Below, piece after piece: positions 42,617 to 59,808 of a stretch of DNA of 64,000 bases. Source of the stretch: Cafeteria roenbergensis (Eukaryota > Sar > Bigyra > Bicosoecida > Cafeteriaceae); the NCBI GenBank assembly GCA_008330645.1, contig VLTN01000016.1:248001-312000 (forward strand), given 5' to 3'. Below the pieces are notes generated by a model that had not been told where the DNA came from, searched no databases, and worked only from the letters and a program-made list of their open reading frames with translations. The position numbers and the translations under genes were made by a program. Each line of letters opens with the position of its first letter. Position 1 is the first letter of the stretch.

Positions 42617-45600
42617 TCAGAGCTTCACGCTCGCCCAGGCGGCATACGCGGGCACGGAAGCGGCTTGCTCGCGGCAAAAGTTGATGTGGTCGATGATGGC
42701 GCCAAGATGCGCGTTCGCCTCGTCCGTGTCGGTCATCGCCTCGCTGATGCGCTCCTTGGCGACGGTCACCATGTTCAACACCAGGTCCGGCTTGACCGTG
42801 GGGCAGCCAAGCCCGAAGAAGTACACGTACGAGGCGAGGATGTCCACGAACGCCGCCGGGTCCCTGGGAATGGCGTCGTCGGCAAGGTCCAGCGCCTTGG
42901 TGAGGCACTTGAGGGTCTCGGGGGCGCGCTGGAAGCCAGGGCGGGCCTCCGCCACGCCAGCCTGGGGCACGGCCCAGAAGAGGCGGGCGCAAGCGAGCAC
43001 GCACTCCACGGCGTGCGCCTTGCGAAGCAGCTTTGCCGCGAACTTGGTGGAGCGGGTAGCGAGGGTGGTGTAGCCCTCCTCGCCCATGCCAGCCGGGCCG
43101 CAGGTGCGGATGGTGCCGATGGTGGCAAGCAGGCTGCTGCGCTGGAGCGCCGACTCCGGCACCTCCTCGTGCAGCACGAGCGCCTCCGTGAGGAAGTTGT
43201 AGCAGAAGCGGGTGTCGCGGGTGGCCGACGCGCAGAGGAGGAACAGGCGGAGGGCGGCGTGCGGGTGGGCGGAGCTGAGGGCAGCGCAGGTCTCGTGCGC
43301 GGTCCGGAGAACCGTCTTGGCCGGGACGCTTCCCGGCGCAGGAGCCGATGCCGCCGTTGCCGCCGCCGCCGCAGGGGCAGGGGCAGGGGCCGCAGTGCTT
43401 GCGGCCTTTCCTCCCTTCTTTCCTCCCTTTTTTCCTCCCTTCTTTCCTCCCTTTCCTCCCTTTGCTCCCTTCTTGCCGTTCCTCCCCTTTCCCTTCGCCG
43501 AGCCGCTCTCGCCCTTGGCGGTCTCGGCGCCGTCCTCTGCACCTTCGTCGGCGCCGTCCTCCTCATCCTCCTCCTCCTCGTCCTCCCCCTCCGCCTCAGC
43601 CTCCTCGTCGGCGCCGGCCCCGGACGACGCCGCCGCAGCAGCTGCCGCTGGAGCGGGCGAGGCCTTGCTGTCCGCCGTCGCGCGGGCCCGGTCGGCATCC
43701 ACGCCGGCTGCGTAGATCTCCAGGAGGCGCACCACCACGGGCTGCAAGGTGTACACGATGCGGTGGGTGCGGCCGAAGCCGAAGGCCTTGCGAGCCGCGC
43801 AGACGACAGCGTACTGGTCCGCGAGGGTGGGGGCGCCGCGGCCGATACAGTGCACCACGCGCGCAACGTTGCGCTGCTCGGCGGCGAAGGCTGCCGAGTC
43901 GGCGCTCGTGGGGGCCGGGGCGTCGTCCTCATCCCGGAGCAGCGGCGACAAGGTGCGGAGGATGGCATCGCACTCCGACACGGTGGAGATCTCGCAGCGC
44001 TGGGTGGCGAGGGCGTCGGCGAGGCTGGCAGCCACGCGGCGGCGCTGCTCGTGGCCCAGACAAGCGAGCAGGCCGGCCGTGCCCGGGAGGAGGGCGGCCT
44101 GCTTGGCGTCGAGGCCGGCGGCGCCGGCGCCCGTCGACCGATCACGGAGAGACGCCGACCCGGCTGCGGCGCCCGCCGCGGACATGGCCCCGGAGGAGCT
44201 CGACTGCGAGTCGCCCTCGCGCGGCTCCCACACCTTGCAGATGAGCTGCGCCACCGCGTCCTGGCCCGCCGCGTTGGCCTCGCGTCCCTCGAACACGGTC
44301 TCGGCGCACTGCTTCAGCACGACGTCCACCTTGGCGAGATCCCCCGGGTAGGCCGAGGCGGCGAACCCGACGATGGCGCCGAAGATGTCGGCGACGGCGG
44401 CACCGCCGATGCGCGCCCCGCGGCCCGCGAGGGCCTCCCGGGTGGCGGTGAGCAGCGCGTCGAGCACTTCCGCCCCGCTGCCCGCCGCCGCCCCCGCCTC
44501 CGTGGAGATGCGGCGGAGGATCCCAGTCATCAGGTCCCGAACGCTCACGCCGTCCACGACCGACGCCGCGGCGGCCACGAGCGGCTCCAGCGTTGCCAGA
44601 TGGAAGCTGACGGGGAAGGCCTGCAGCAGGCAGTCGAAAATGAACTCCTGGGCGAGCGCGTCGCCGGAGTTTCCGATTTCGGTGAGCAGAGCCGGGAGCA
44701 CCGCCTCCGAGTAGAGGGCCTCGGTGACGCCCTCCACGTTGGCGAGCTTGTCGATGGCCGTGCCGATGACCTGGCGGATCTCCAGGCGCTCGCGGGAGCG
44801 GCGCTTCTTGCTCTTGCCGTCGGCGGCGGCCTGCATGCGAACCCACAGGCGGATCATCTCCACGGCGTTCTCAAGCACGAACATGACGGCGTCCTCCACC
44901 GTGCCGCCCTCCCCGTGGTACGGGGACCCCTCCTCCGGGAGCAGCGTGCCCGTCTTTTGCAGGAGGAAGTAGCGCAGGAAGAGGCCGCGGGTGGGGTGCT
45001 GCACGCCGCGGCACATCTCGCACATGTCCTTGAGGACCTTGTTCGCAGGCATGCGCCGCGAGCGGATCACCAGGGGCCCCGCGGTCACCATGAGGTACAG
45101 CCGGGGCAGCACGTTTCCGGCGTGCTGAACCATCTCGTACAGCTCGCGCGCCGTACGCTTGCCACTGGAGGCCGTGTGGTGGAAGTATGCCTCGAGGGAG
45201 TCCAGCTGCGAGAACACGGTCATGTCTGCGGCCAGCGGAGCGCGAGGCACGAGGGCGGGCGGGGGGGCGGAGGGGCGGAGCGTCGAAACGCGCGTGGTTC
45301 AAGCGCCCAAGGTTGGCCGACCGCAACGCCGCCGCACGCGCGGCGACTCTGTTGCACCGGCCTCACAGAGCTCGTAGTAAGGCTTGGGCGACAGGTGCTT
45401 GGTCCTGAGCTCGTGGAGCATCGCCAGCGCGTGCTTCAGCGCCTCCTTCAGGTTGCCTCCGTCCTGCAAGCCAAATCAGTCAACTCGGGTCCAGGGAACG
45501 CAGCAAGCGTGGCCCCGCGCCGCCCGAGAGACGCAAAACAACGCGCCCCGCGGCACGTTGGAGCCGCGGCATGTGGCAGTACCCGCGGGGCAGCTCATGA

Positions 45601-47565: not shown

Positions 47566-48787
47566 TCACGGGGCGCCGGCTGCGGTGCCGCGGGGAGCGA
47601 TGACGTTGAGGCCAAGGCCGGCCACCGTCTGGAGCAGGCTCGTCTCGCGCGGCAGGAAGCGCACAGTCGTGTTCGCGCAGCTAGCCACCTCCCGGAGCAC
47701 CTCAACGTACTTGGTTGCGAGCAGGTACTTGGTGACGCTGCCGGGGCCGCCGTGCTTGAAGACGACGGAGCCCACGACGCGGGCCGTTTCGGCCTCACCG
47801 CGTGCCTCGTTCACGGTGGCGCGAGCATTACCCTTGGCAGCGGCAAGGGTCTGGGCGGCCGTGCCCTCCGCCTCGCGGAGGATCCGGACCTGGTCGCCCT
47901 CCGCGTCGATGATGGACGTCTGGCGGGTGGCGCGGGCCTTGAGCAGGAGCGCGTTGTTGTTGAGCGAGGCGTTCTTGGCGCGGGCCAGGGCGTCGTGGAG
48001 CGATCCCACGTCGACCGACTGGAACTTGACGAACTTGATCTGCACGCCCCAGCGGGTGGCGATGCCCGACATCTCGGAGGACACGCGGGAGGCGGCGCGG
48101 GAGGCCGCCGTGGACTCGATGAGCTGGTCGACGTCGAGCTGGCCGGCCACGTTGCGCACCTGAGCCTGCAGCAGCTTGGAGAGCATGTCGGGGACGTTCT
48201 GGGTGGAGTACAGCATGCCCTTGGACGAGGAGACGCGGAAGGACAGCAGGGCGTCGAGCAGCACGAGGCAGTTGTCCCGGGTGATCACGGCCAGGCGCGG
48301 GGTGTCGATGACCTCGTCCTTGAGCACGACGCGGTACGTGCGCTCGGACACGTGGTCCAGGCGGTTGTTCACCAGGCGGTGGAAGTCGCGCTTGAAGACC
48401 TTGGGGCGGTCGATGAAGGGAACCAGGCAGTGGCACCCGGCCTGGAGCAGCGTGTGGAACTTGCCGCAGCGCTCAACGACCACCTCTTGCTGCGCGAGAG
48501 GGAGGCAACGCGAGGGCGGTGGCAGGAGCAGGAGCGGCGGCGCGTCACGGGGCGAGCGGCGGCCAGCGGGCGGCGCGCGGGCTCGGCGCCGCCGGCGCGC
48601 GGCTCGGCCCGGCGCGGCGCGCGCACTAGAGGGCGAGCAGGCAAAGCAGGCAGGCCGCTCGCGGCGCCACGACGTGCCCGCCGCTCACGCGCTCCAGGAC
48701 CAGAATGATGGCCCAGTAGATGTTGTAAAGCAGCACCAGTCCAAGCACCACCCCGATGACCGCGCCGGCGATGGCGGCCCCGTCCAT
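47566..48787 (-). CDS. SPFH/stomatin-like membrane protein
   Basis: Two exons, 48689-48787 and 47566-48489, 340 residues; the 199-nt intron begins GTGAGC. The first exon encodes a membrane anchor (AGAVIGVVLGLVLLYNIYW). The second gives the SPFH domain: VVVERCGKFHTLLQAGCHCL, VPFIDRPKVFKRDFH, then VITRDNCLVLLDALLSFRV and a long amphipathic helix with AEGTAAQTLAAAKGNARA. This is the stomatin/SLP pattern. Such proteins form oligomeric membrane scaffolds. Without a clear mitochondrial presequence I would not call it SLP-2. Same strand as ATP10, about 255 bp upstream of it. Confidence 0.88.
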
Positions 48788-49490: not shown

Positions 49491-52400
49491 ATGGCGTCGG
49501 GTGCCAGCGACAAGGCGCCTCCACCCATCAGCACACCGGCGGTGGCCAGATCTCCTTCCCGTTCCCTGCTGGGCCGCACCAAATCTGGCATGCCCCTCGG
49601 GGTGGACCAGTTCCGCAGGTCGAAGTGAGCATTGTACGCGGGCTTGAGGCGGAGTTCGGGCCTGCGGGCGACGGAGGCGTCGCTCCAAGGGGCTGGCTGG
49701 TGCCGGGACCGTGAATTGGGCGTTGAGTTTTGGCCCGGCCGGGCCCGGAAACGAGTGCCGCACGGAGCGCGCGAAGCGCAGCAGCACGTGCCGTTTATCG
49801 CCGCGGTGCCTTCCCCGCGTGTGTCCTTGCCCCTGTTGGGCCGCAACCGTCAAGGCGGCCTGGGGTCGCTGTCGAAACAGAGCTGCATTCCCTGCGGCGC
49901 CGGCTCCCCCCCCCCCAACCCTCGCGACACCCGGCCGCCGGGCGGCAAAGCCCTTCGCGCTTCAAGCCCAACAGTGCAGCCCTTTCAGGCAGCGCTGCAT
50001 CGCTCCCGCCCCCTCCCTGGCGGGTGCGCGGGGCGCAGAGGCAATCGCTGCGCGCGTGAAATGTCTCGTTCCTCTGCGGTTCGCAGGCGCGATGCGATGC
50101 CCCGCGAGGACCTCGTGAACTTGCTCGAGGGCCTTGGCATCCGCACCACTTCCGGCTACGTTGCCAGGGAGATTGAGCAGCTGACGCGGGCGGACGGCCA
50201 GGTAAGCCTGCCTCTGTCCCGCAGCCACATCTTCACCCGCGCAACCCAGGGAAGGCTGGCCATTCCGGCGTGGAACGAGTTCGCGGGGGTCATCACGGAC
50301 ATTGCGGACAGCGTGCGCCGCGACGTGACCGGGGGCGCCAACGCGGACTACATCCAGGTGCTCCGGGACGCTGACCCGACCAAGTTTGCAGTGTCCGTGG
50401 TGACTGTGGACGGGCAGCGGTACAACTACGGCGACTTCTCGCACACGTACAGCATGCAGTCGTGCTCCAAGCCCCTCACGTACGCGATCGCGGTGGACGA
50501 GGCCGGCGGCGCCCGCGGCCTGCCGTTCGTGCACAGTCACGTTGGCAGCGAGGCCAGCGGCCTGGCGTTCAACTCCATCTCCGTCAACGACGCAGGGCTT
50601 CCCCACAACCCCATGGTCAACGCGGGCGCCATCGCCTCCGTGGGCCTCGTGGGCAGGCACTGCCCCGACCTGAGCTCCCGCTTTGCCTACCTGATGGGGC
50701 GCTACAGGGAGGTGGCCGGCGATACGGAGGTGGGCTTCAGCCAGGCGACGTACCTGTGCGAGCTGGAGACCGCCTGGCGGAACAACGCCATCCTGTACAC
50801 GCTCTCCGAGGCCGGCGTGTTCAACAAGCGGACTCACCCGTACACCACGCTCGACCTTTACATCCAGGCTTGCGCCACCGAGATCAACACCGAAACTGCC
50901 GCCATGATCGCGGCCACCTTCGCCAACGGCGGCGTGCAGCCAATCACGGGAAAGCGCGTCCTGTCCACGGCCGCGGTCAAGGCGGCGCTCACCCTGTGCT
51001 TCAGCTGCGGCCTGTACGACGGGTCGGGGACCTGGGCCGTCAACGTTGGCCTGCCCGCCAAGTCCGGCGTTGCCGGCCTCATCTACGTGATCATCCCCGG
51101 CGTGGCGGGCGTGGCCGTCTTCTCGCCCCCCCTGGACGAGCACGGCAACTCCGTGCGCGCCGTGGCCTTCTGCGAGCGGCTCGTGCGCACGTTTCCCTTC
51201 GGCCTCTTCGACAAGGCCGTGTCCGACGTCCTCTCCGAGCTCTCGCCGCCCATCGACCCGCACATGCTCTACCTTCCGCCGCACCTCCGCCGCGCCCGCG
51301 CTGTCATGGAGGCGGTGCGCAACCGCCTCCGCAAGGCGGCCAAGAACGCAGCCAAGTACGGGGGAGCGGCCTCGATGGCCGCAGCCTCTGCGGCCGCGGC
51401 TGCGAGGGCTGGCTTCGGGCCCGCCTTCAGCGCCTCCCTCTCCCGCAGCACGCTCCGCTCTGCCGTGGGCACCACGGACGCAGGGAACGAGTCCGAGGAC
51501 TCTGACGACGAGACCGCCTGGGCGGAGGCGGCGGTGTTCCGCGCCCAGCAGCTTGGGATCGACGTGGACTACGGCATCGACTACTCTTCTGCGTTCAGGC
51601 TGCTGCAGGAGCCGGCGCTCGACCCGGACAAGGAGGCCGACGCCGACGGCGGAGGCGAGGACGAGGCTGTGTCGCTGGCTCCCGTGGCGCCCGCCCTCCT
51701 CCTCAGCCACAGTCTTGCAGCCGCGCACTCGCACACCAGCGGGACGCCTGTGCCTAGCGCCGGCGCGGGGTCGGCCGCTGGCGGGGGCGTTGGCGCCGGC
51801 CGAGGCACCGGCTCCGCCGGGCGGCGCGAGGGGGCGGCCTCTGGCCCGGGAACTCCCGGCGCTGGACTGGGCAGCGCGGCCTCCGAGGCGTCAGCGACTC
51901 GCCAGTCGGGCCGCGACTCCGCCCGCCAGCCCGTGGGCTTCACGAGCGAGGCGATTCGTCACCTTCACGCGCGCTTGGGTGTCCGACACGTCATCCGAAA
52001 GCTCGGCAGACTCTGGGCCGCATTCCGCGCCCTGAGGGACTGGGCGCCGGGCCGCCACGACGTGCGCCTGCGTGACGGGCGGGGGAGCTGGGCCAAGGGC
52101 ACTGCGCGCAGCGCTCCGGCCTCCGATCGCCAGCCGGGCTCTGCGGCCCGAAGCGGTCCGGGCTCCGTCGGCCCTCCGAGCCTGGCCTCGACCCACGGCC
52201 GCGCCGGCTCTGACGTCCCCAAGGCCTCGCCTGCGTCCGCTGCTCCGGCTGCTGGCAGCACCGGCCCAGCAAGCTCGGCGGCGCGCGGCTCTTCCATCAG
52301 TGCCGCAACTGCGATGGCAGCCTCCACGTCGGCCTCGTCCGTGCGAAAGACCGTGACGGGTGCCAGCGTCGACTCCACCGGCTCCGCCGCAGAGCTCTTC

Positions 52401-55400
52401 CCCGACGTGTCGGTGGTGCCTTCGGCCGGCATCGAGGCGTGGCGCTTCGCGTCGTTCCTGGCGTCCAAGGGGATGGCTTGCACGCACGCGAACAACCCGC
52501 GAGTGACCTTCCTGCTGGTCACGCTGGCGCGCGACACGGGAGTCATCCGCTTCCAGGACCTGGTCCTCTCCCCGGTGGCGGCGGCGGACGCGCTGCTGCT
52601 TCGCGCGCTGCTTGGGAAGCTCGTGGTGGATGACTTCCAGGGCGTTCGGCAGTCCATTCGGGACATGGCCACGGCCGTGCTGCGGTTCGTGCCGCCGGTG
52701 CCGATCAGGCGCGACGGGACGGTGCCTCCCTCGGCCGTGGCAGAGTTTAACGAGAGGCAGCGGCTTCACCAGGCGGACGGGATGGCGGCGGCGGCCGCTG
52801 CGGCCTCAGCGCTGTCGCACCGGGGGGGGAGCACGGGCGGACGCAGCGACGCCGGCGACGCCTTTGCCGCGGCGCTCTCCGCCCCTGCGCCGCAGCGCCG
52901 CCGCCAGGTCAGCCACGGGCACGACTCCGGGGCAGGCGTGACTGGCGACGCGGCCACGCTCGCGTCGGAGCAGGAGGAGGACAGCGCGGACGCGCTCCGG
53001 GAGGCTGCCGCCATCAAGTCGGCGGCGGACCCGCTGCACGACCTCAAGGAGCAGATGGGCAGCCACGGCGCTGCAGGCGCCGGCGGGGCAGGGGGCGCTG
53101 GCGGGGGGGCTGGCAGCGGTGCCGGTGCCGGCGCCGGCACCGGCACCGGCGAGGACGGTGCCGGCGGGGCGGGCTCCGCGGCCGGGCGGTATATGTCCGA
53201 TACTCGCCGCTCCAAGGTCGACGAGCACCGCGACGCCCTGGACGAGGAGCTCAAGTCCGTGTGCGGCGTGACCCCCGACACGTTCGGCGTGGCCCTTTGC
53301 ACCTGCGACGGGCAGTACGCGTGCATGGGGGACTCCACGAAGCGGGTGCCCATCATGGAGATCGCGTTCCCGCTGCTCTACGCCATGGCGATGGAGGACT
53401 CGGGGGCCGACGCCGTGAACGCGTGGGCGGGCACCGAGCCGTCCTCGCATCCCCCGGACAGCTTCACGCTGCGGGACCCGACGGGCGGCGGTCACGGCGG
53501 CGGGGGCGAGGACACCAAGGACGATGACGAGGGCGCTGACGGCGAAGCGGCCGCGATGGGCACCGCGGAGTGGGAGGCGCTGCCCGAGGACGTGCGCCTG
53601 CGGCTGGAGGTTCGCGGCCTGAGGAGGCGAACGAGGGTGCGCCGGGAGAGGAGAAGGCGGCGGCGGCAGCAGCGCAGGCGCTGGAGAGAGATGCGGTCGA
53701 GGGGGGGCAGGGAGGCTCTCATCGCCGAGCAAGAGGAGGCTGCTGCGACCGACTCGGAGACGACGGACTCGGACAGCGCTGGAGACGAGAGCGAGGCCGC
53801 AGGCGCTGGCCCTGCCGCTTCTGCTGCTACCGCTGCCGCTGCCGCTCGGGAGCGCGACGGTAAGGAGGACTCTGGGACTGACGACGAAGCTGCGGAAAGC
53901 CTGCGCCCCCAGCGGGGACAGCGCATCACGCAGGTGGCGCCTCTCGCTCCCACCGCGCAGGCAGCCTTCCCCAGCGGAGGCGCGGGCCTGGCGCTGGATC
54001 TGGGCGCCAAGCGCCGCGCCGCGCCTGCCAAGTCGGGCCTCGCTCCCATCTTGGGCACGCAAGCAAGGGGAGCCCGGGCCGGCGCTGGAATCGGCGGGCT
54101 TGGCGTGCCGGTGGCTGCCACTGGGGCCGGGATGGCGGGAAGGGCGGGCACCCTGGCTACGACTGTCAGCGGCCTGCCGCCAATGCAGCCGCCAGCGCGG
54201 CGGTTTCGCGGGGTAGCCGGGACGGGATCGGCTGTGCTTCACGACGCTGCTGCCATGGGCGGCGTGGACCCGAGCCGGGACCACAAGGCCATGCCAAAGC
54301 CGGGAGCGCACCGTCCGTACAACGCGTGCACGCTGGCTGGCGCCCTGACAGTCATGTCGTGCGTGGGCAGGGGCCACCTGCGCAAGCGCGAGCAGCTGTT
54401 CAAGGACTCTGGCAGCCGCTTCACGCACGTCGTGACGCGCTTGCAGGAGTGGGCAGGAGACACCCGCCTCGGGTTCAACAACGCTGCGTGCCTCCTGCTC
54501 AAGCAGCGGTTCCTCCGCTGCCTCGCGATGGCGCACTACCTCAAGGGCATGGAGGCGCTCCCGCCGAGGTGCGACCCAACGGACATTGCCCAGGCGCTGG
54601 TGCAGTGCATGAGCGTGGAGGCCACCGTGCGGCAGCTCGCCACGCTGGCAGCCACGTTCGCCCGCGCGGGCGCCTGCCCGACCACGGACCGACGCTGCAT
54701 GCGGCCCTCGACGGTGAAGAACACCCTGTCCATGACCTACACCTGCGGCATGGGCCCCATCTCCGGAACGTGGACCTTCAACATCGCGCTGCCTGCGACC
54801 GTCGGCTGCATGGGCGTCACCCTCGTAGTCATCCCGGGCCTCGGAGGCCTGGCCCTGCTCGACGGCACCAAGGCGCGGCTGGACCCGTCGCGCCCCATGC
54901 CCGCCCGCTCTCTCAAGTTCTGCGAGATGCTCGTCCGCCAGTTCCGCGTCAACATGTTCGACGCCCTCATCGTGGCCTCCTCCGGCAGCGGCGACTCCGG
55001 CCAGCAGATCACCAACGCAAGCGAGGCCAAGGCCACCGCTGCGTCTGCGGCCGCGCGCCGGGGGGACCTGTCCGCGACACTTCTCTCCTTCGAGCTCATC
55101 TCCGCGTCGGGGGCCGGTGACCTCGACAAGGTCATGTCCCTCATCAAGATGGGCGCCGACGTCTCCTCCTCCGACTACGACGCACGCACGGCGCTGCACA
55201 TCTCGTGCTGCGAGGGCCACCTGGACATCGTGGCCGAGCTCACGCGACAGGGCGCCGACCCGCTGGTGCGCGACCGCTGGGGGCAGACGCCGTTCGCGGA
55301 GGCGTCGCGGTGCGGCCACGGGCACATTGTGACCTTCCTAGAGAGCCACCTGGTGTCGCATGGCCAACAGCCCCCGCTGGAGAGGCACGCGGAGCCGGCG

Positions 55401-55436
55401 GCGGGGGAAGAGGCCGCCGCTCACCCGCGCGGGTGA
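49491..55436 (+). CDS. Giant glutaminase: active domain, degenerate second domain, ankyrin repeats
   Basis: Exons 49491-49624 and 50087-55436, 1827 residues; the 462-nt intron begins GTGAGC. The first unit has the EF-hand-like helical domain seen before animal glutaminase, then the catalytic domain: QSCSKPLTYAIAVDEA (Ser170, Lys173), NPMVNAGAI, CGLYDGSG (Tyr355) and GLPAKSGVAG. These match the serine, lysine and tyrosine of human GLS, which hydrolyses glutamine to glutamate and ammonia. A long low-complexity linker leads to a second EF-hand-like and glutaminase-like unit where QSCSK is replaced by VPIMEIAFP, CGLYD by CGMGP and PAKSG by PATVG, so it should be inactive. Two ankyrin repeats (ARTALHISCCEGHLDIV...) close the protein, as in human GLS. 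The N-terminus is basic and Ser-rich; mitochondrial targeting is possible. Confidence 0.93.
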
Positions 55437-55865: not shown

Positions 55866-57846
55866 TCATCCTCTGCGCGTCCGCTTGCCCGGCGGCGCGT
55901 GAGACTGCAGGGTATCCCACGCACCAGACGGCAAGTGGTCGATCTGCTGCGACGAAAGTGACGGCACACGCGCCAAGTCAGAGGGCGCGCCCCCGCTCAC
56001 GGGAGCGAACGCTCGGGACTGTGCCGCGCTCAGCACGGCCGCCGGGTCGTCCTCGTCTTCCTCGTCTTGCTCCGCGGCTGCTGCAGCGGCTGCTGCTGCT
56101 GCCCCGCCGACCGCCTCGCCTGGTTTGCGCGTGCCAAAGCCTTCGTCTCTGCGAGTTGGGGCCCTGTGCTCGATGGAGCCGGTTGACATGACGCCAGCTG
56201 AGCGCTCGCGCTTGATCGAGTTCCGGCCGGAGCGGCGCGGCCCGGCGGCGGCGTCGGCAGTCGCGGAACTAGCCGCTGCCGCCCGTGCTGCCGCTGAGGC
56301 TGCCGCTGTTGCGGCTGCTGTTGTGCTGGCTGCGGCAGAGAGCTGCGCCGCGGCGATGCTGATGGCGCTCGCGCCGTCCATGCCAGGCGGCCCCTGGGTC
56401 GGGCCGTGCTGGGCCGGGTGGATGCCGAGAGACGGTGGATCCACGGCGGGGGCCGATCGGTCGGCGGGGATGGGGCCCGAGTGCATTGAGGAGAGGAAGC
56501 CTTGCAAGGGCGGGGCGGCTCCGTACGCCGCGCTAGACGTAACGGGCATGGACTCCATGGCGCTGAGTGGCGCGCTCAGGTGGGCGGCCATCACAGGGTG
56601 CCCGTTGCTCTGCTGCGCCTGAACGTGGCCGCTGGGCTGGACGGTGAGCCGGCCGCCGACGTGGCTGCCGAGGGAGCTCCGGGCGAAGAGCAGCTCCGGC
56701 TGGCTGCCGGGCGGGCCGGCGCGATGGTAGCTGCTGTAGCCGTGCCCGTGCGTGGCGGCGCTGGAGTGGGCGACCTGCGGTCCCGTGGCTCCCTGTGGTG
56801 CGTACCCGTGCGCCCGTCCCGCTGCTGCTGCCGCCGCGCTGCTGCTCTGGGCAGCGATGCCCTGCAGCATGGACATGACGGACTGGAAGTTGCGCTCCAT
56901 GGTGGAGCGCAGGTTGGCGACGCTGGTCTGCAGCTCCTGCACCTCCGAGTGCAGGGCCTCGATGTCATCAGCGCCGGCGCCGACGCTCCCCGAGGAGGCG
57001 ACCCGCGCAGGCGCGCGGCGCGAAACGATGCGCTCGCCAGTCCGGCGCTTGCTCATCACGCAGATGGGGATCGACTGCACGCCGCGCACAGCCATGGCCG
57101 CCGCGGCTGCTTCGGCGTCGCTGGGGGTGGCGTCGCCGGGGTCGGCCGGGGCCACGAAGACGCGGAAGCGCTGGCCGTCCTTGCGCCTGGACACCTTTTC
57201 AAGCCGGAACTCCACCTCGACCTCCCCCTTTCCGGCCGGGATGACCCAGGGGTCGTAGTCCGGCTTGCACAGGTTCAGGATGGCCTGGTCCCGCTGCTCC
57301 ACCTCGCGGCCGCTCTCGTAGTACAGCACGAACCGCAACGGCACGTCCACGCTGAGGTCGCGCGCGTCCGGGTGCGCGACCACCATGACCAGCTTGTTTG
57401 AGCGGCCGCCCTCATCCTGCAGGCGCGCAAACGGGCGAGGCAAAGCGCGGGGGTGGGGGGCAGCAACGGCCTGGCGGCGCAGCCGCATGGCTTTCCCGCT
57501 CCCCGCCGCTGCAGTGCCCCGCTGCGCGCGCTCACCTTCCAAAAGTTGGCCTCCGGCTCTTGCGTGATCTCAAGCGCCTGCGGAGGCGGGACGCGCCGTA
57601 GCGGGCGAGGAGTGGAGAGCGCGCACGCACCCGCGGGGCTGTTGCGGCCGCAAATGAGCAAGTCGCATGCATAGGGGCCGGGCGCTGCGGTTGTTCGCGC
57701 GCGGAAGCGCGAGTCGCCGCTGCCGCCCGCGGGAGGGGCGGCAACCGCGCGTGTTCGGCCGCCTTCCGCCTCGCGCTCGCGGGTAAACTATCGCCTGGAT
57801 CGGGCCGCGGAAGTTGCCAACTCACCCGCTCGTCTTGCCCGGACAT
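55866..57846 (-). CDS. Protein with an unrecognised N-terminal domain shared with its head-to-head neighbour (copy A)
   Basis: Three exons, 57826-57846, 57536-57577 and 55866-57416, 537 residues; introns of 248 and 119 nt begin GTGAGT and GTGAGC. The joined N-terminus reads MSGQDER|ALEITQEPEANFWK| DEGGRSNKL. The domain continues VPLRFVLYYESGREVEQRD, VEVEFRLEKVSRRKDGQRFR and ends with SIPICVMSKRR. It aligns block for block with the plus-strand neighbour. A short coiled coil follows (IEALHSEVQELQTSVANLRS), then a long Ala/Gln/Ser-rich tail and a basic patch. The domain looks rich in beta strands. The SKRR motif, coiled coil and disordered tail would suit a nuclear regulator, but that is a guess. 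Start codons of the pair are 224 bp apart. Confidence 0.8.
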
Positions 57847-58070: not shown

Positions 58071-59808
58071 ATGGCATTCGACGGCGGAAGCGCACGTCTC
58101 CACCTGGCGTCATCTGCGCCCGGCGCATCGGACGAGGGCCCTGGCCTCTCCATCAAGGAGCAGCCCCTCAGCGTGTGGTACAAGGACCAAGGCGGCAAGA
58201 AGGCCCTCCTCTCCACGGTCGTGGGCGCCTCGGTGAAGCTGACGCACGTTGTCCCGCTTCAGTGCCGACTGCTCCTGGAAAGCGGCTCGCCTCCGCCCGA
58301 CGCAGCCTCGCTCCTGCAGATCGAGGGCCTCTCCAAGACGGACATGCTCGCCCTGGGACCCAGCGCGTCCGAGATCACCGTCTCGTTCCGCATCGCCAAG
58401 GTGAGTCCGAGCCCGGACGGCCGCGCTTCGGCGCGTGCTCGTCGTTTTTTGCCGGCTTTGGAGACGTCCGCAAGTTTTCTCCGCGTTGGTGGGGACACGT
58501 GCGCGGGCGGCGGAGCTCCCGCGCCGCCGAGGCCCCCCTGCAGGGCAGGCGTGCAGGCGTGCATGCCTCGGCCTCCCGCCCGGTCTCGGGGGGTGCGGCC
58601 GCGGGGTCGCTTGGCGAGGCGGGCGGCGGGCGAAGAGGCGACCGGGTGGGGTTTTCGTTGGGTGCTCCGCCGCGGTTGCCCGCCATCGCGCCATCGGGCG
58701 CCGGCCCCGAGCCGCGCGCCAGCCCGCGGGCGCGCTCGGTGGGGAGGCTGGAGCCGGGCCGGGATGCGGGGCTTGCCTAGTCTAAACCGGCTCGAAACAG
58801 TCGGCGGGCAGTCACTCCATTCCCGCCGTGCGTTTCCCGGTCGAACTTTCGCAGGTGTCGAGGAATTTCGACAACTCTCGGTTTGTTCTGGAAATCTCGC
58901 CCGACTACGAGAAGGCGGCCGTCGTCCCGCCCCCCGAGCAGCAGCTGCGGAGCGTGCGCACGTTCCCCATCCTGGTCAAGTCCAAGCGCAGGCGCACCTC
59001 CGGGCGGGGCGCGGGCGACGACTCCTCGGTCACGGGCGGCACCGGCTCCGAGACCGCGACGGCAGGCCCGCTGGTGGTGCCTCCCTCTTTGACCGCGCCC
59101 TCCCAGCGCCCGGGCGCCGACGACGGCCTTCTGCGCACTGTCCTGGCGGAGCAGCGCCAGCAGTCGCAGATGATGGCGACGATCCTGAGCAACCAGATGG
59201 CCATCATGAGCCGCCTCGGCATCCAGACGTACCGCCCACGTATGTTCGCGCCGCCGCCCCACGGCGCCCACGACTATGCCGTGGGCGCGGGCGCGGGCGT
59301 GGGCGTGCCGCCCGCTCCCGAGGGCGAGGCCTCCCAGCGCCCCGGCACGCCGGGCCAGGCCCGCTACCGCCGGGAGGGAACGGACTCCTCGATCAACTCG
59401 GCCGCGTCGGACGTCTCCCTGCTCACCTCGGCCCCGGACATCTTTGGCGCTGGAGTGGTGCGGGGCTCGCAGCCAGTTTCGGCGGCAGCCCAGGCGGCCG
59501 CCGTGGCCTGCTCCGACGCGGCAGCGACGGCTTCCGTCGCGGGCCGGTCTCCGCGCAGCGCCATCCTGACGCCGTACGCGCACTCGGCGTCGTCCATCGT
59601 CGCCCCCAGCATGCGGCCCTCGGCAGTCACGTCTGGGACCACGGCAATGGCGTCGGCGGCTCCGTTGGGCCCCACGCTGTCGTCGTCCACAGCGGGCTCG
59701 ACCGCCACCGCCGCGCCCCAGGGCGGCATGCACCAGCTGCTCGTCGCCGCTGAGGTCGCGCACAACGCCAGCAAGCGGCCCCGTCGTCAAGTGGAGCCCT
59801 TCCGCTGA
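58071..59808 (+). CDS. Protein with an unrecognised N-terminal domain shared with its head-to-head neighbour (copy B)
   Basis: Exons 58071-58400 and 58855-59808, 427 residues; the 454-nt intron begins GTGAGT. The N-terminal domain runs GLSIKEQPLSVWYKDQGGKK, VVPLQCRLLLESGSPPPD, EITVSFRIAK|VSRNFDNSRF and VRTFPILVKSKRRR. Each block pairs with one in copy A (ITQEPEANFWKDEGG, VPLRFVLYYESG, VEFRLEKVSRRKDG, IPICVMSKRR). Here the intron falls between the two last strands; copy A has its introns earlier, so intron positions are not shared. A short helix (VLAEQRQQSQMMATILSNQM) follows the domain, and then a disordered Ala/Pro/Ser-rich tail ends in a basic KRPRRQ. Function unknown. Confidence 0.8.

What the first reader, a model, noticed from the sequence alone, without database searches (positions are those of the whole stretch)
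49491..55436. Tandem glutaminase: a live domain joined to a pseudo-glutaminase domain and ankyrin repeats
Two full EF-hand-like plus glutaminase units lie in one 1827-residue protein. The first keeps Ser170, Lys173 and Tyr355 and the PAKSG loop. The second keeps the fold markers (GFNNA, CGMGPISG, VVIPGLGG) but has lost the serine-lysine pair, the tyrosine and the PAKSG lysine. Known animal and bacterial glutaminases have one catalytic domain per chain and work as homo-oligomers that form filaments. Here dimer-like pairing may be built in, with a dead domain that could regulate the live one. I know of no described enzyme with this layout.
Basis: partly seen in the sequence, partly recalled or inferred. 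Interest (0 to 1): 0.75.

Follow-up and report, generated by a model that had tools for sequence, protein, structure and literature searches.

The report
Glutaminase fused to its dead twin
The only glutaminase gene found in a marine flagellate's genome encodes one apparently working copy of the enzyme joined to a second, apparently dead copy, and the same live-plus-dead design recurs in many protist-like sequences, which suggests that the dead half has a job, probably as a built-in partner.

Summary

It is not a Cafeteria oddity. Of 37 scored proteins with two near-full glutaminase units, 32 are live-first, dead-last (the window and two other Cafeteria entries included). In the window's family 36 dead units form one clade (100/100). 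Dead units lost the catalytic set (16% kept, 59% expected) but kept most residues reported to contact the next tetramer in human filaments (79%, 42% expected). Their activation loop is longer in 36 of 36 (21-332 residues against 18 in 22 of 22 live units). Other tandem glutaminases fall outside this family, one with the dead unit first.

Best reading: a selected pseudoenzyme acting as built-in partner of the live unit. Loss of activity is inferred from residues, pairing from model confidence; regulation is untested. Searches of open papers found no description.

The parts
49491..49624 (+). Exon 1 (residues 1-44 and two bases of codon 45)
   Evidence: ATG at 49491 read directly. The annotated P0002 starts at an internal Met, MPLGVDQ.
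49625..50086 (+). Predicted GT-AG intron, 462 bases
   Evidence: the P0002 protein joins RRSK to RDAMPRED. No transcript was seen.
50094..50246 (+). Unit 1 helical N-terminal (EF-hand-like) domain, residues about 48-98
   Evidence: The same region of relative P0007 aligns with the N-terminal domain of GAC (model 20-408 against GAC about 141-539).
50247..51221 (+). Unit 1, live glutaminase domain, residues about 99-423 (S170, K173, N223, E270, N277, Y303, Y355, V373)
   Evidence: PF04960 over its 286 positions; 9 of 9 catalytic positions kept.
51222..52394 (+). Linker between the units, residues about 424-814, low complexity; a stretch resembling a relative's (FTSEAIRHLHARLGVRHVIRKLGRLWAAFRALRDWAPG) at about 51939-52052
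   Evidence: 56% identical to P0004 where aligned. P0004 has a similar stretch and the P0007 model a long helix, 436-468, in its linker.
52395..52643 (+). Unit 2 helical N-terminal domain, residues about 815-897
   Evidence: The model of 52395-55433 aligns from its first residue with GAC from about 147-149.
53214..53477 (+). Unit 2, first part of the pseudo-glutaminase domain, residues about 1088-1175 (E1136, F1139 in place of the catalytic Ser and Lys)
53478..54290 (+). Low-complexity, charged insert in the activation loop of unit 2, residues about 1176-1446
   Evidence: Activation loop longer in 36 of 36 dead units than the 18 residues of 22 of 22 live units; low model confidence here.
54291..54971 (+). 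Unit 2, second part of the pseudo-glutaminase domain, residues about 1447-1673 (L1461, L1516, C1523, L1549, G1601, C1619 at catalytic positions; N1510 at the place of GLS2 N308)
55080..55352 (+). Ankyrin repeats, residues about 1710-1800
   Evidence: PF12796, PF13637 and PF00023 above their cut-offs; second stretch aligned with the GLS2 ankyrin region.

Best explanation
One chain carries a working glutaminase (unit 1) and a conserved pseudo-glutaminase (unit 2) that most likely takes the place of a second subunit. Unit 1 should hydrolyse glutamine to glutamate and ammonia with its Ser170-Lys173-Tyr355 set. Unit 2 should not hydrolyse glutamine. It keeps the fold, its own helical N-terminal domain and most residues reported to touch the next tetramer in human glutaminase filaments, so it most likely packs against unit 1 as a fixed GLS-like partner, two chains making a tetramer-like body with two live and two dead sites. 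Its activation loop, which moves into the active site in human filaments, has become a long variable insert, and the only ankyrin module hangs on the dead half. Shown: gene layout, residue pattern, family-wide conservation, modelled fold. Inferred: loss of activity (from residues), pairing within the chain (from model confidence), assembly and regulation (by analogy with human GLS).
Against: No coordinates were available, so a GLS-like dimer pose was not seen. pTM of the window half is only 0.59. One filament-contact position (D345) is kept in only 11% of dead units, and unit 1s mostly have Gln at N308. The filament positions are also conserved in the 17 reference rows, which include at least one bacterial protein, while bacterial enzymes are said to lack a conserved filament interface (PMC13142944 passage), so these residues may serve the fold and not filaments. 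Some dead units keep Lys222 (64%) or Ser219 (19%). P0020 has two live units, P0156 and P0027 a live and a nearly live one, P0049 two degenerate ones, so a live/dead pair is not obligatory. No activity, transcript or oligomer data.
Confidence: 0.6

Rival explanations
1. The dead unit is a plain scaffold: it keeps its fold to stabilise the chain or to carry the ankyrin module and the long charged insert to a binding partner, with no effect on catalysis by unit 1.
For: Long variable loop insert in 36 of 36 dead units; ankyrin repeats follow the dead unit in the window; the dead unit diverges about 1.6 times faster than the live one (median path ratio, 22 proteins).
Against: Retention of reported filament-contact residues above the matched expectation (14 of 20000 draws as high); a family-specific motif on the helix that lies at the dimer-dimer interface in GAC (PMC10912226 section 8).
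Confidence: 0.2
2. The dead unit has a re-used pocket that binds another ligand and works as a sensor for the live unit.
For: Many dead units share new polar residues at old catalytic positions: Asp at 268 in 23 of 36, Asn at 399 in 23 of 36, Ser at 417 in 18, Glu at 219 in 16.
Against: In Cafeteria the pocket positions are mostly hydrophobic or small (L, L, C, L, G, C), so the pocket there looks filled; the pattern varies between lineages.
Confidence: 0.1
3. The chain is cut in the long linker and the two units act as separate subunits, pairing in trans.
For: Low-complexity linkers and insert of hundreds of residues.
Against: Fusion kept across the family; P0007 and P0009 have short linkers. 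No processing data either way.
Confidence: 0.07
4. Artefact: two neighbouring genes merged by the gene model, or an assembly error.
For: The P0003 gene model drops part of the linker, so annotation of this gene is not uniform; the intron is predicted only.
Against: One open frame of 1783 codons; the same layout in other Cafeteria entries and in many relatives; dead units form a deep clade.
Confidence: 0.02

Closest known systems
Animal glutaminases KGA (GLS) and GLS2
   Same: Helical N-terminal domain, glutaminase domain and C-terminal ankyrin repeats; unit 1 and the ankyrin region align with GLS2, and the second half of the window protein aligns with near-full-length KGA (8gwr, model 1-987, large rmsd 12.9 A).
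   Different: One catalytic unit per chain in GLS and GLS2 (alignment; PMC13142944 passage). Here a second, degenerate unit lies between the live unit and the ankyrin repeats. Lys320, which binds the activator phosphate in GAC, is Glu, Asp, Ser or Ala in the family's unit 1s.
Bacterial glutaminases with one catalytic domain (E. coli YbaS 1u60, B. subtilis YbgJ 1mki, Mglu 3if5)
   Same: Glutaminase fold of both units.
   Different: No second unit (by the lengths).
Other tandem glutaminases found here (P0020, P0022, P0027, P0057, P0074, P0153, P0155-P0158)
   Same: Two glutaminase units in one chain, in most of them one degenerate.
   Different: They fall outside the window's live and dead clades. 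The three scanned with Pfam (P0020, P0022, P0057) have ankyrin repeats right after unit 1. P0153 has the dead unit first; P0020 has both live.
Enzyme-pseudoenzyme pairs such as JAK kinase JH1/JH2 or plant PDX1.2 (JAK recalled; PDX1.2 seen in the abstract of PMC6829848)
   Same: A dead relative of an enzyme domain kept next to the live one.
   Different: Another fold and reaction. Whether the glutaminase pseudo-unit regulates anything is untested.

Membership tests
Glutaminase family PF04960 (unit 1) | Match over the profile's curated cut-off | tested here: met
   Residues 128-419 match positions 1-286 of 286; whole protein 448 bits, cut-off 27.
Glutaminase family PF04960 (unit 1) | Catalytic Ser-Lys-Tyr and substrate-binding residues | tested here: met
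   9 of 9 positions.
Active glutaminase (unit 2) | Catalytic Ser-Lys-Tyr and substrate-binding residues | tested here: not met
   None of 9 kept in the window; 16% kept across 36 dead units.
Active glutaminase (unit 2) | Glutaminase fold | tested here: met
KGA/GLS2-type glutaminase | Helical N-terminal domain + catalytic domain + C-terminal ankyrin repeats | tested here: met
   Second half: and ankyrin families. The live half lacks ankyrin repeats of its own; none is listed between the units.
KGA/GLS2-type glutaminase | One catalytic unit per chain, homo-oligomer | tested here: not met
   Two units in one chain.
Filament-forming glutaminase | Assembly into filaments on activation | not testable with these tools
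   Only contact residues were compared: 79% kept in dead units against 42% expected.
Pseudoenzyme (unit 2) | Catalytic residues lost while the fold is kept by selection | tested here: met
Pseudoenzyme (unit 2) | No catalytic activity; an effect on the live partner | not testable with these tools
   Needs an enzyme assay.

The most novel reading that the evidence does not exclude
The dead unit is a built-in assembly switch. It keeps residues of the filament face but has lost the lid, the substrate pocket and the moving activation loop that in human GLS couple filament growth to glutamine and phosphate. These protist enzymes would then assemble without substrate or phosphate, the live units being held active, or gated through the loop insert and the ankyrin module, by permanently assembly-competent dead neighbours; and the fusion of a live to a dead glutaminase would have been invented more than once.
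Probability: 0.18. Interest if true: 0.78.

Novelty: new variant of a known kind. Interest (0 to 1): 0.6.

Why it matters
Human glutaminases are drug targets whose activity depends on dimers, tetramers and filaments (PMC10912226, passages), and in a homo-oligomer it is hard to say what each subunit contributes. Here evolution has split the roles: one half keeps catalysis, the other keeps fold and contact surfaces. This natural experiment makes it testable which surfaces and loops serve assembly and which serve chemistry. I found no description of the family in the open papers searched; where its members bear a name it is 'hypothetical protein', 'glutaminase' or 'glutaminase A', so annotation hides that half of each protein looks dead.

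Tried and rejected
Merged genes or assembly error: rejected. A duplicate in free decay: rejected, as unit 2 is 84-89% identical to P0004 where linkers and insert are 36-60%. Independent decay of unit 2 in each lineage of the window family: rejected, as dead units cluster with each other, also without the catalytic columns. 'All filament contacts kept': rejected, D345 is mostly lost. Human-like phosphate control of unit 1: doubtful, as Lys320 is replaced in its family. A pseudo-glutaminase living alone: no clear case. The short dead-unit proteins P0048, P0053, P0056 and P0161 may be cut gene models (not checked), and P0193 and P0200 are single and partly degenerate. Mitochondrial targeting: not tested. 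Organisms of P0011 and P0023: I recall Halocafeteria and Platysulcus from the name prefixes, but searches did not confirm it. Pasquali 2017 on glutaminase evolution is not held, so earlier mention there cannot be excluded.

Rows dropped or set apart: P0006 (oyster, four pieces) was left out of the residue tables, so 37 of 38 two-unit proteins were scored; ten more proteins with a partial second unit were not put in that count. 'Live' there means at most 1 of 9 positions changed and 'degenerate' at least 3, gaps ignored, so P0047 (Tyr399 changed) and P0026 (Lys to Arg) count as live, and P0013, P0015, P0018 and P0045 are cut at the N-terminus of unit 1. Near-duplicates and short rows were dropped before the trees (92 rows, 83, 70). 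The live set (24 rows) and of the loop count (22 rows) leaves out P0049 unit 1, which is itself degenerate. The 17 reference rows include unit 1 of the other tandem proteins P0020, P0022 and P0057. The join of the live and dead clades is less firm than each clade alone: 95/77, 82/79; live and dead rows taken together needed three changes. The bootstrap had not settled and long branches are present, so the number of tandem origins is unsure. One search scored 7980, 7990 and 7994 candidates (those sharing most words), and one search listed 120 of 134 hits, so family size is a lower bound. I fixed the filament set from the paper but had already seen that N308 is kept.

Full report
What is there. 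The window lies in an unnamed 36.3 Mb, 167-contig genome. Its protein matches Cafeteria roenbergensis FNF31_05825 (100% over 98% of the query) and FNF28_01171 (100% over 56%) in best local alignments. Size and GC fit the published assemblies of that bicosoecid flagellate (PMC6972860, passages; strain BVI there has 170 contigs and 36,327,047 bases). The gene starts at ATG 49491, has a predicted intron 49625-50086 and ends at 55436, for 1827 residues. In a six-frame search it is the only gene of this genome that matches the glutaminase family PF04960.

Two units, one live. By GLS2 numbering (Y182, S219, K222, N268, E314, N321, Y347, Y399, V417), unit 1 has Y133, S170, K173, N223, E270, N277, Y303, Y355 and V373; unit 2 has E1099, E1136, F1139, L1461, L1516, C1523, L1549, G1601 and C1619. 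The lid position E1099 lies near the start of the aligned piece and is the least sure. The list of nine follows the GLS structure literature by recall. Ser286, Lys289 and Tyr466 of GLS are named as catalytic triad in PMC13142944 (passage), and Lys222, Glu314, Tyr182, Tyr251 and Tyr399 of GLS2 appear in PMC10912226 (passages and sections 8, part 1, and 9).

A conserved family. The three protein searches and the window gave 120 proteins with a glutaminase domain. 38 have two near-full units, 37 of these were scored, and ten more have a partial second unit. Of the 37, 32 are live-first/dead-last, 1 live/live (P0020), 1 dead-first/live-last (P0153), 1 with a slightly changed first and a live second unit (P0156), 1 live with a nearly live second unit (P0027) and 1 with both degenerate (P0049). 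Six of the 32 (P0022, P0057, P0074, P0155, P0157, P0158) lie outside the window's family, and three are Cafeteria (window, P0002, P0003). In the 92-row tree, 36 dead units form one clade (100/100), next to a clade of 26 rows (99/91) with the live unit 1s, the single-unit protein P0032 and a stray middle piece of P0008; the join of the two clades has 95/77. A second tree with other rows gave 20 dead units at 100/100 and the join at 82/79. Without catalytic and activation-loop columns, pseudo and live rows each need one change (SH-aLRT 99). Live and dead subtrees agree on 5498 of 10626 quartets for 24 proteins, against a mean of 33% and a maximum of 38% in 30 shuffles. Path lengths correlate (Spearman 0.70, 22 proteins, pairs not independent), the dead unit moving about 1.6 times faster. 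This fits one old fusion followed by joint descent.

What was lost and what was kept. In 36 dead units the catalytic positions match the reference residue in 16%, against 59% for positions of similar conservation (4 of 20000 draws as low). Seven filament-contact positions named in PMC10912226 match in 79%, against 42% (14 of 20000 as high), although one of them, D345, is kept in only 11%. N308, whose change to Ala keeps GLS2 at tetramers with less activity (PMC10912226, section 9), is Asn in 32 of 36 dead units, but Gln in 17 of the live unit 1s. These positions are conserved in the reference rows as well, which include at least one bacterial protein, so they may serve the fold. The activation loop is 18 residues in 22 of 22 live units and 21 to 332 (median 54.5) in 36 of 36 dead units. 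Its aromatic lock residue (GLS2 Y251) is Phe or Tyr in all 23 live rows with a letter there and kept in none of the dead ones. Dead units share a motif of their own at GLS2 325-331: S or A at 325 in 36 of 36, H at 326 in 30, Y or F at 327 in 36, K at 329 in 34, G at 330 in 36, M at 331 in 29. It lies on the helix with GAC Tyr394, Glu397 and Lys398, reported at the dimer-dimer interface (PMC10912226, section 8). Live units differ there, which would fit an asymmetric live-dead contact.

How it most likely works. Unit 1 catalyses. Unit 2 is a fixed partner that should not turn over glutamine but offers the surfaces of a glutaminase subunit. The ankyrin repeats sit on the dead half. [quoted passage not shown] My confidence: unit 2 dead about 0.95; kept by selection about 0.95; paired with unit 1 within the chain about 0.6; regulatory about 0.45.

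More than one fusion? P0153, P0155/P0158, P0057/P0157, P0022 (source name CFRG0549T1, which I recall as Creolimax), P0020/P0156, P0027 and P0074 are tandem glutaminases outside the window's clades. The two units of P0153 are each other's nearest relatives (88/90) and stand in reversed order, which suggests a separate duplication. The bootstrap had not settled and long branches are present, so at least two origins is likely, not shown.

What is known. Searches for pseudoenzyme, tandem, inactive or duplicated glutaminases gave 19, 0 and 4 papers, none about this family as far as the listings show. A wider search held 32 papers, 10 listed. A 2026 review of filament-forming glutamine enzymes has no word starting with 'tandem' or 'pseudo' (PMC13142944, passages). 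Pasquali 2017 on the evolution of glutaminases and their ankyrin repeats is not held, so earlier mention there is possible.

Verdict. A real and conserved fusion of a live with an apparently dead glutaminase: a new variant of a known enzyme family, with a plausible but untested built-in-partner mechanism.

Noticed in passing
P0153: Tandem glutaminase in reversed order: unit 1 degenerate (AGKSENFGI at the nine positions), unit 2 intact; its two units are nearest to each other.
   Followed up: partly
P0039, P0040, P0041: Single glutaminases split by an insert of roughly 540 to 900 residues in the middle of the catalytic domain; P0039 and P0040 are named Amoebophrya.
   Followed up: no
P0006: An oyster protein (Pinctada imbricata, partial) with four glutaminase pieces in one gene model; could be merged neighbouring genes.
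   Followed up: no
P0049: A family member in which both units are degenerate by the nine positions.
   Followed up: no
P0016, P0017, P0203, P0204: Glutaminase proteins that also carry a cyclic-nucleotide-binding domain (PF00027, precomputed); P0016 and P0017 are tandem members.
   Followed up: no
window 51720-52394: The FNF28_01171 gene model (P0003) drops this part of the linker as if it were an intron, while P0002 and P0004 translate it and P0004 has a similar sequence.
   Followed up: partly
window 42617-45250 - and 47566-48483 -: Neighbouring genes: Vps35 (E 4.2e-141) and a Band 7/SPFH protein (E 7.5e-17).
   Followed up: no
window 55866-57542 - and 58071-59808 +: Divergent neighbouring ORFs with no Pfam match at E up to 0.01; by eye their first parts look alike, perhaps a diverged gene pair.
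   Followed up: no
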